From: Spirochaetales bacterium
GTDB lineage: Bacteria; Spirochaetota; Spirochaetia; SZUA-6; RPPD01
Direction of reading: 5' to 3'
Assembly (NCBI GenBank): GCA_016929065.1
Contig: JAFGJO010000018.1
Location: 1 to 58,328 of the forward strand
Length of the DNA stretch: 58,328 nucleotides
Part shown: positions 29,695 to 32,264 of the stretch, piece after piece
How the letters are laid out: each line of letters opens with the position of its first letter
How positions within the stretch are numbered: the first letter of the stretch is position 1
Notes under the pieces: model-generated
Told to the model about the DNA's origin: nothing
What the model saw: the letters and a program-made list of their open reading frames with translations, nothing else
Database searches by the model: none
Made by a program: the position numbers and the translations under genes

Positions 29695-30990
29695 ATGAAA
29701 ATCGGATATAAAATACTATTATCAATCAAATATCTTGCCGGTCATTTTCGAAGATATATTTTTCTCCTTGTTGTATTGTGTTTCAGCTTTGCAGTTATTA
29801 CCGCGACAACAACGATCGTTGAGGGGATGACGGAAAATGTTTTTCTTGCAGCAGAAAATCATTATGCAGGGCATGTATTTGTTTTGGGATATGAAAAAGA
29901 CAAACGAAGTGTCCTGCGGATTACCGATTCGGATACTATTCTGAATGTGGTAAAAAATGCCGGATTCAAGCCGGCTAAAACTGTATTACGGACGCTCTCA
30001 TACAATGATGCATCATTATATTTTTCCGGTGTTTCGGTAAAACAAAAATATGTCTATGGAATAGACTGGCAAGTTGAACAGGATGATTTTAAAAAATTGA
30101 CTTTTATCGATGGAGAGGCCTCAGATGACTTTAACAATAACGGCATTTTCATTTCTGAACCAGTCGCACATAATCTTCAAGCACGCGTAAATGACGATGT
30201 ATTATTGGAAGTTCAGACAAAAACAGGTCAAAAAAATACACTAAAATTTATTGTGAGAGGCATTATTCGGGATTCAAGCATTTTTGGCTTTTTTAAATGT
30301 TTTGTCAGCAGAACCAGTCTTAATATGCTGTTGGGATACGATGAATCTGATTGCTCTTCAATTGGACTTTTTTTCAAAAAGAATGATGATCTGTTTGAAA
30401 AAACAGATATACTTTACACCGCGTTGGAAAATATTTTCAGCCTCGGAGATCCAATAAAAAACCGGGAAGATTTTACAGAGCAGATCCGTGCAGATTTTTC
30501 GGGATTCCGTTATTTTGTATTTCCACTGTCGGTCTATATTTCGCAGGTCTCCGATCTTTTGACAGCAATGAAATTTATTTCATATTTTCTTTATGTTTTG
30601 ATGATCATTATTGCCATATCCAGTTTGACGGTAACCTACCGACTGATACTTTATGAACGTTCCAGAGAAATTGGTACCGTCAGGGTACTGGGAATGCAAT
30701 CCTGGAATACACAGATTGTCCTTGTTTTTGAGTCTGTTTTCCTGTTTCTTGTCGCTGTCATTGCCGGTCTGTTTTTATCTCTGCTCTTTACCTGGATACT
30801 TTCGATGTTTTCTTACGAATCCATTCCCGGATTTGATCTTTTTCTGAGAAAGGGAAAACTTACGGCATCCTATACACCGGGAATTATATTCACCAATATT
30901 CTCATCCTTTTATTAACCGTATTACCTGTTGTATGGATTCCGATGTTCAATATTTCACGAGCAGATATTGTTAATACATTACGAAAATAA
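29695..30990 (+). CDS. FtsX/LolC-type ABC transporter permease without partner ATPase
   Basis: The 431-aa protein has one membrane helix near residues 18-40, an extracytoplasmic domain of about 230 residues (MacB-type periplasmic core), and three helices near 285, 335 and 390 with the cytoplasmic coupling segment YERSREIGTVRVLGMQ between them. This is the layout of MacB, LolC/E and FtsX permeases, which move lipoproteins, peptides or signals using a separate ATPase. No ATPase gene is adjacent, so it must pair with one encoded elsewhere. It sits 42 nt after the polysaccharide locus in the same direction. A link to glycan export is not established. Its substrate is unknown. Confidence 0.83.
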   Translation: MKIGYKILLSIKYLAGHFRRYIFLLVVLCFSFAVITATTTIVEGMTENVFLAAENHYAGHVFVLGYEKDKRSVLRITDSDTILNVVKNAGFKPAKTVLRTLSYNDASLYFSGVSVKQKYVYGIDWQVEQDDFKKLTFIDGEASDDFNNNGIFISEPVAHNLQARVNDDVLLEVQTKTGQKNTLKFIVRGIIRDSSIFGFFKCFVSRTSLNMLLGYDESDCSSIGLFFKKNDDLFEKTDILYTALENIFSLGDPIKNREDFTEQIRADFSGFRYFVFPLSVYISQVSDLLTAMKFISYFLYVLMIIIAISSLTVTYRLILYERSREIGTVRVLGMQSWNTQIVLVFESVFLFLVAVIAGLFLSLLFTWILSMFSYESIPGFDLFLRKGKLTASYTPGIIFTNILILLLTVLPVVWIPMFNISRADIVNTLRK

Positions 30991-31006: not shown

Positions 31007-31097
31007 ATCGAGTAGGAGGCTGATGAAATAATTCATCAGCCGACCTCTCACACCACCGAGGGGTCACCTCCGAATGGGTGCACCCTGCCGGGCGCAC
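31007..31097 (-). mobile_element. internally deleted class C group II intron (91-nt remnant)
   Basis: On the minus strand the segment begins GTGCGCCCGGCAGGGTGCAC, which fits the 5' GUGYG consensus and the first domain I helix of bacterial class C group II introns. After a short GAGGTGA...CCCCTC hairpin it jumps to GGTGGTGTGAGAGG, the end of domain V. A domain VI hairpin GGCTGATGAA/TTCATCAGCC and the typical 3' end CTCCTACTCGAT follow. The intron starts 2 nt after the T-run of the dnaJ terminator, the insertion site preferred by class C introns. Ribozyme core and reverse transcriptase are gone. Confidence 0.68.
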
Positions 31098-31100
31098 TAA

Positions 31101-31138
31101 AAAAAAGCCCTTGAAAACAACTTCAAGGGCTTTTTTTT
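31101..31138. terminator. bidirectional intrinsic terminator of dnaJ and the permease gene
   Basis: A perfect 9-bp stem GCCCTTGAA/TTCAAGGGC (31107-31130) with a 6-nt loop is flanked by an A-run on the left and T8 on the right, so it works on both strands. On the minus strand it follows the dnaJ stop directly; on the plus strand it ends transcription from 29695-30990. Confidence 0.9.
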
Positions 31139-31139
31139 A

Positions 31140-32264
31140 TTACAAATCTTTCAATTTGACCGGCTGCGGCGAATTGTTGCCGTCGATCTGGTCGGCCAGT
31201 TCCTTTAACAGCTCTTTGGCGCGTGTGCTCAGTTTTTCCGGCACCACCACATCGATCTGAATATATAAATCGCCCCTGCGCGAAGTCGAGTTGATAAAAG
31301 GAATCCCCTCATTTTTCAGCCGCAGTATTTTTCCGTTTTGTGTTCCGGCCGGTATTTTTACCTTGACCTTTTTATTGTCAATAGTCGGAACAAGTATTTC
31401 GCTGCCGAGCGCTGCCTGGATGATATTTACGGGGATGACACAATAGACGTCATTTCCTTCCCGTTTGAAATACTCATGCGGTTCAACATGAATGTATACA
31501 TACAAATCGCCCGAAGGTCCGCCGAACTGGCCTGCATCCCCCTGTTCCGGAATGTGTATCCTCCTGCCGTTTTCAATACCCGCGGGAATTGATACTTTCA
31601 ATACACGCTTTTTCTCGACAACGCCGCTCCCGTGGCATTCCTTGCAGGGATCCTTTATGACATAGCCGTCGCCGTTACATTGCGGACAGGTGGTGGCAAT
31701 GGAGAAAAATCCCGAGCTGCGCCGCACCTGCCCCGAACCTGAACAGGCCGGACACATTGTCCTGCCGGCTCCCGATGATGCACCGGAGCCTTTACAGGTT
31801 TTACAGGAATCATGCCTTCCAAATGCAATTTCCTTCGAAGTTCCAAAAACAGAATCACTAAAGCTGATCTGCAGGTCATACCGAAGGTCAGCTCCCCGCC
31901 GGACATTCGACCGTGACTGACTGCGTCTTCTTCCGCCGCTCCCGCCGAAAAAAGAATCGAATATCCCGGAAAAATCTCCAAAGATATCCTCAAAATCACG
32001 GAAAACTGATGAATAATCATGCGCACCCGCGCCCATTCCCTCTATGCCTGCAAAACCGAACTGATCATAGGTCTGGCGTTTTTTGTCATCGCTCAGCACT
32101 TCATAGGCTTCCGTGGCTTCCTTGAAGCGTTCTTCAGCCGCCTTGTCGCCGGGATTTTTATCGGGATGATTCTTTATTGCCAGCTGCCGGTATGACTTTT
32201 TAATGTCATCTTTCGATGCATTTTTGGGTACACCCAGCACTTCATAGTAATCTCGTTTTGCCAA
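31140..32264 (-). CDS. dnaJ: chaperone protein DnaJ
   Basis: DnaJ delivers unfolded substrates to DnaK and stimulates its ATPase. The 374-aa protein starts with the J domain (residues 1-70, with HPDKNPGD at 33-40). A glycine-rich linker, the four zinc repeats ([32 protein letters not shown]), and the substrate-binding C-terminal beta domains follow. All family parts are present. It is the last gene of a grpE-dnaK-dnaJ run and is followed by a strong terminator. The gap to dnaK is 32 nt. Confidence 0.97.

What the first reader, a model, noticed from the sequence alone, without database searches (positions are those of the whole stretch)
31007..31097. Class C group II intron reduced to 91 nt, sitting directly behind the dnaJ terminator
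On the minus strand the segment opens with GTGCGCCCGGCAGGGTGCAC, close to the 5' end of class C introns such as that of Oceanobacillus iheyensis. It closes with a domain V end (GGTGTGAGAGG), a complete domain VI hairpin and CTCCTACTCGAT. It lies 2 nt after the T-run of the dnaJ terminator, where class C introns insert. Everything between (ribozyme core, reverse transcriptase) is deleted at a short junction. Keeping both exact ends while losing the middle suggests a single internal deletion or a MITE-like mini-intron mobilised in trans.
Basis: partly seen in the sequence, partly recalled or inferred. Interest (0 to 1): 0.68.

Follow-up and report, generated by a model that had tools for sequence, protein, structure and literature searches.

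The report
Gutted group IIC intron behind dnaJ
A 91-base stretch just behind the dnaJ stop signal is the leftover of a self-copying RNA element (a class C group II intron) that lost almost all of its middle; it is a dead relic rather than a new kind of miniature mobile element, though the same genome and its relatives carry many even shorter leftovers at the same kind of site.

Summary
The 91 nt at 31097-31007 (minus strand) are the first 37 nt of a class C group II intron, two extra bases (CT), and its last 52 nt. Both parts match, at 100%, the ends of apparently full-length introns in the same genome: 5' ends behind terminators at the ends of contigs C28 and C29, 3' ends with complete domain V on C40 and C41. 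About 1.8 kb is missing, including EBS1, the domain V catalytic strand and the reverse transcriptase.

The deletion reading stands; the MITE-like reading does not. It is the only such element in this genome and among 395 genomes of the class, and too stripped to be mobilised. Two unrelated short relics turned up in about 85,000 genomes, so this decay recurs but is rare.

The setting is more striking: this genome and its relatives hold many 12-52 nt stubs of the intron 5' end directly behind terminators, outnumbering continuing introns (roughly 28 to 20). How stubs and the 91-mer form (DNA deletion, or a jump during reverse transcription) is open. Ordinary as an object, mildly interesting as a pattern.

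The parts
31061..31097 (-). Intron 5' end, 37 nt, starting with the 20-nt hairpin GTGCGCCC-GGCA-GGGTGCAC
   Evidence: 37/37 identical to intron 5' ends at contig ends C28 and C29, which continue into class C domain I sequence; hairpin -14.9 kcal/mol
31059..31060 (-). Two junction bases (CT) present in neither parent side
   Evidence: left over after exact matching of both sides to C28 and C40
31007..31058 (-). Intron 3' end, 52 nt: last strand of domain V (CGGTGGTGTG) and complete domain VI with bulged branch-point A, ending CCTACTCGAT
   Evidence: 52/52 identical to C40; C41 shows the same 3' end; in both the sequence is preceded by complete domain V; fold with bulged A in CCU-A-CUC, z -6.1
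31099..31138 (-). Intrinsic terminator of dnaJ (AAAAAAAAGCCCTTGAA-loop-TTCAAGGGCTTTTTTTT); symmetric, so it could also serve the convergent gene
   Evidence: read directly from the sequence; the simple terminator scan missed it, probably because the stem pairs into the T-run
31140..32264 (-). dnaJ, upstream of the terminator
   Evidence: Pfam DnaJ, DnaJ_CXXCXGXG, DnaJ_C
29695..30990 (+). Convergent gene for an FtsX-like permease; its stop lies 16 nt from the relic's 3' end
   Evidence: Pfam FtsX E 2.3e-14

Best explanation
It is an inactive relic of a full-length class C (IIC) group II intron that once inserted 1 nt after the T-run of the dnaJ terminator and then lost about 1.8 kb of its middle in one event, leaving 37 nt of the 5' end, two junction bases and 52 nt of the 3' end. 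It does nothing as an intron now: no EBS1, no domain V active site, no reverse transcriptase. Shown: identity of both ends, position behind the terminator, single copy. Inferred: that the parent at dnaJ was full length, its size (taken from related introns, about 1.9 kb), and that one event made the junction. How the event happened is not settled: a replication-slippage or end-joining type DNA deletion, or a jump of the intron's reverse transcriptase from domain V to the 5' end while it was inserting.
For: Both halves match separate, apparently full-length introns of the same genome at 100%. Those contigs end 76 nt (5' side) or 84 nt (3' side) inside the intron, as expected when an assembler breaks at a repeat of at least two copies. 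Insertion context (T-run + A | GTGCG) is the same at dnaJ, C28, C29. A complete related intron runs from GTGCGCC behind a terminator to CTCCTACCCGAT about 1.9 kb later and encodes a reverse transcriptase (L113). Domain VI fold intact. Independent relics of the same build behind terminators: 84 nt in a Bacillota MAG (L039) and about 130 nt in Paucibacter (L038). Truncated introns are the majority in bacteria (PMC4424553, PMC4028801).
Against: No empty or full-length allele of the dnaJ site is available, so the parent at this site is inferred. The interior of the intron is missing from the assembly and no reverse transcriptase was found, so full length of the introns at C28/C29/C40/C41 rests on their ends. 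The two bases CT are unexplained. The 3' breakpoint is shared to the base with an unrelated fragment at C10:57303, which a random deletion would not predict.
Confidence: 0.93

Rival explanations
1. Short-circuited insertion: during retrohoming the reverse transcriptase copied the last 52 nt, stopped in the last strand of domain V, added two untemplated bases and jumped to nt 37 of the same RNA, so the 91-mer was born short and never was full length at dnaJ. The 12-52 nt 5' stubs would be the same event with nothing copied from the 3' end. (This is a variant of the best explanation: same identity, different origin of the deletion.)
For: The 3' breakpoint is identical to that of the C10 fragment (52 nt) and about 3 nt from that of L039, all in the last strand of domain V; two extra junction bases; 5' pieces of 12-52 nt are common behind terminators, with none ending between about 52 and 76 nt. 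Papers report template switching by group II intron reverse transcriptases (PMC5566474, PMC3280974).
Against: Only three shared 3' breakpoints, one of them (L039) found by a pattern that favours this region. DNA palindromes at the same place (CCGTACGTACGG) could attract deletions. No allele series to tell born-short from shrunk.
Confidence: 0.3
2. MITE-like mini-intron: the 91-mer is itself mobile, moved in trans by the proteins of the full-length introns.
For: It keeps both exact ends and full-length partners are present. ORF-less introns mobilised in trans exist (PMC2882425).
Against: Single copy in the genome, none in 297 relatives, no other among 395 genomes of the class, none in viral contigs. 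It lacks EBS1 and the domain V catalytic strand, so it should not be able to reverse splice; ORF-less mobile introns keep the ribozyme.
Confidence: 0.02
3. Assembly artefact: the contig skips a full-length intron and joins its two ends.
For: The genome is a draft of 69 contigs and the intron is a collapsed repeat.
Against: The junction holds two bases found in neither side, which a k-mer path through the full intron should not create. Independent relics of the same build exist elsewhere.
Confidence: 0.04
4. A trans-spliced minimal intron, like Euglena group III introns (90-120 nt, domain I-like and domain VI-like parts only).
For: Same size, 5' GUGYG and a domain VI with bulged A are kept; group III introns are described this way (PMC4424553, PMC2882425).
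Against: It sits between convergent genes behind a terminator, so there is nothing to splice for, and no conservation in relatives.
Confidence: 0.01

Closest known systems
Class C (IIC) group II introns inserted after intrinsic terminators (e.g. those of Oceanobacillus iheyensis, Bacillus halodurans, Thermoanaerobacter italicus Ta.it.I1)
   Same: Both boundary sequences, domain VI, insertion point directly behind the terminator T-run
   Different: Lacks everything from nt 38 to the last strand of domain V, including EBS1, active site and reverse transcriptase
Truncated group II introns of bacteria; fragmentation with loss of the 3' end (RmInt1 literature, PMC4496777)
   Same: An inactive remnant left in place
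   Different: Here both ends remain and the middle is gone; the more common relics in this clade are 12-52 nt 5' stubs
ORF-less T. elongatus introns with one shared ORF deletion (PMC2882425)
   Same: Internal deletion of an intron in a genome with related full-length copies
   Different: Those keep the ribozyme and proliferated; this one lost the ribozyme and is single copy

Membership tests
Class C (IIC) group II intron | 5' boundary consensus GUNYGCCNRGCAUGG | tested here: met
   14 of 15 positions; 37/37 identical to the genome's own intron 5' ends (consensus from PMC4028801)
Class C (IIC) group II intron | 3' boundary CCUACYCGAU and domain VI with bulged A | tested here: met
   exact ending; fold with unpaired A in CCU-A-CUC
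Class C (IIC) group II intron | Insertion directly behind an intrinsic terminator | tested here: met
   1 nt after the T-run of the dnaJ terminator, same as C28, C29
Class C (IIC) group II intron | Complete domain V with catalytic triad and bulge | tested here: not met
   Only the last strand of domain V remains; RF00029 12.3 bits against a gathering score of 40, while complete ends score 45-61
Class C (IIC) group II intron | Domains I-IV with EBS1/EBS3 and a reverse transcriptase ORF | tested here: not met
   Only 37 nt of domain I remain
MITE-like non-autonomous element | Several dispersed copies sharing the same internal junction | tested here: not met
   Single copy
MITE-like non-autonomous element | Autonomous partner with the same ends | tested here: met
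   C28, C29 (5' ends), C40, C41 (3' ends); their interior is not in the assembly

The most novel reading that the evidence does not exclude
The 91-mer and the many 12-52 nt 5' stubs behind terminators are footprints of one process: insertions of class C introns that were cut short (reverse transcriptase jump, or trimming down to the protected 5' hairpin), so that terminators keep a record of failed or erased intron insertions.
Probability: 0.25. Interest if true: 0.6.

Novelty: new member of a known kind. Interest (0 to 1): 0.33.

Why it matters
As an object it is one more dead intron, but it shows exactly what is left when a terminator-targeting intron decays. Together with the stubs it suggests that scans based on the reverse transcriptase or on domain V miss most traces of these elements, and that the middle is lost in a non-random way that could reveal how hosts clear them or how insertions abort.

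Tried and rejected
MITE-like mobility: rejected by copy number and missing parts. Rfam at gathering threshold: no hit, as expected for a fraction of domain V. RVT_1 in the own assembly: none, the intron interior was not assembled or binned. A conserved hairpin unrelated to introns as the source of the stubs: unlikely, because stubs of 26-52 nt continue into intron sequence beyond the hairpin and sit at the intron's insertion point. Comparing sister species to find the origin of stubs gave one useful locus (G185 stub; G247 stub plus 1.5 kb; G292 without stub) and one locus where the flanks were too different (G195). A search around the Bacillota relic's genome was not possible. No paper on miniature class C introns was found.

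Full report
What is there. The minus strand 31097..31007 reads GTGCGCCCGGCAGGGTGCACCCATTCGGAGGTGACCCCTCGGTGGTGTGAGAGGTCGGCTGATGAATTATTTCATCAGCCTCCTACTCGAT, 91 nt, starting 1 nt after the eight T of the dnaJ terminator. On the other side, 16 nt away, a convergent gene for an FtsX-like permease ends.

Same genome. A search of the whole assembly (69 contigs; the window is contig C38) with this stretch gave itself plus partial matches: the first half at the ends of C28 and C29, the second half at the ends of C40 and C41 and inside C10, and two very short 5' matches on C12 and C51. At C28 and C29 the 5' end follows a terminator T-run and continues GGTAAAACGGGAAGTCCTCTACAGACCCGGCAGGGGGAA, class C domain I sequence, until the contig stops; at C40 and C41 the 3' end is preceded by a complete domain V (GAACCGCCGTATACGGAACCGTACGTACGGTGG) until the contig stops. 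This is how an assembly looks when at least two full-length copies of a repeat break it; the interior is not in the assembly, and no RVT_1 domain was found. Base by base, the relic is 37 nt of the 5' end, CT, and 52 nt of the 3' end.

What is lost and kept. Compared with a related complete intron (L113: 5' end behind a terminator, reverse transcriptase ORF, domain V at 1.84 kb, CTCCTACCCGAT end) about 1.8 kb is missing. The 5' hairpin and domain VI with its bulged A fold well. Domain V keeps only its last strand, and RF00029 drops to 12.3 bits against 45-61 for complete ends.

Is it a family? No second 91-mer in this genome, in 297 relatives by BLAST, or among 395 genomes of the class by pattern; none in viral contigs. 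A pattern for any class C intron with only 14-44 nt between its 5' motif and the last bases of domain V, run over about 85,000 species genomes, gave two unrelated cases: an 84-nt relic behind a terminator in a Bacillota MAG (L039) and one of about 130 nt with complete domain V behind a terminator in Paucibacter (L038). So such relics arise independently and rarely. A mobile mini-intron is not supported.

Surroundings of the same kind. The 5' motif with at most one mismatch occurs eight times in this genome; seven follow a terminator T-run. Two are the presumed full-length copies, one is the dnaJ relic, and four are stubs of about 14-21 nt (C12, C51, C54, C29:74489) followed by unrelated sequence. 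In 198 genomes of the same group the pattern T-run + GTGCGCCCGGCA hit 24 genomes, with a single control hit. Measured against intron 5' ends, 49 sites (own genome included) fall into two groups: matched prefixes up to about 52 nt (31 sites) and 76 nt or more (18 sites, all running on into intron sequence). Three of the 31 are misfiled by this measure (L131 looks like coding sequence; L137 and L143 look like introns with an altered early part), so the true ratio is near 28 short to 20 continuing, the dnaJ relic counted among the short ones. Published work already says that decaying group II introns tend to lose the 3' end (PMC4496777); a limit of about 52 nt is not something I found described, but my literature search was small.

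Re-insertion at the same spot. In G154 (L121/L013) a complete 2.6-kb intron is followed directly by a 36-nt 5' stub, and in G185 contigs C179 and C245 look like the same site without and with an intron in front of a 15-nt stub. New insertions therefore seem to land between the T-run and the old stub. At a terminator next to tRNA-Phe, G185 and G247 share the stub while G292 has none.

Mechanism. One internal deletion is the simplest account and needs nothing new. Two details fit it less well: the 3' breakpoint is the same base as in the C10 fragment and about 3 nt from that of L039, and the junction holds two extra bases. Both would fit a reverse transcriptase that stops in domain V and jumps to the 5' end, an activity reported for this enzyme family (PMC5566474, PMC3280974), but palindromes in domain V DNA could equally attract deletions. 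I leave this at about 0.3.

Limits. The dnaJ site has no empty or filled counterpart. Stub counts rest on exact 12-nt matches in draft genomes, and a few stubs may be chance or diverged introns.

Noticed in passing
G000 C12:2274, C51:5122(-), C54:104798(-), C29:74489 (loci L148-L151) and loci L106-L147: Many 12-52 nt stubs of class C intron 5' ends directly behind terminator T-runs, at least as common as continuing introns; the 20-nt hairpin GTGCGCCC-GGCA-GGGCGCAC is a frequent end point.
   Followed up: partly
L121/L013 (G154:C316) and L123/L160 (G185:C179, C245): A complete intron followed at once by an older 5' stub; in G185 the same site seems to exist with and without the intron, which points to re-insertion or to precise loss between the two 5' ends.
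   Followed up: partly
L140 (G003:C57:124047), L112 (G189:C10), L151 (G000:C29:74489): Stubs whose hairpin pairing extends into the flanks (e.g. TTTTTTTATG...CATAAAAAAA), in two cases between convergent terminators.
   Followed up: no
L022 (G127:C16:12279-12323, -): A 5' stub of about 33 nt supplies GGAGGT just before the ATG of a gene that looks like a purine nucleoside phosphorylase, as if reused as a ribosome binding site; L015 may be similar.
   Followed up: no
L004 (G000:C10:57303-57355): A 52-nt 3' fragment of the intron with the same breakpoint as the dnaJ relic, next to a locally duplicated sequence (L004 1-256 and 1372-1500).
   Followed up: partly
L108 (G085:C143:2810-2830, -): A 13-nt stub with CCGTACGTACGG, the domain V palindrome, about 70 nt downstream; may be another gutted intron.
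   Followed up: no
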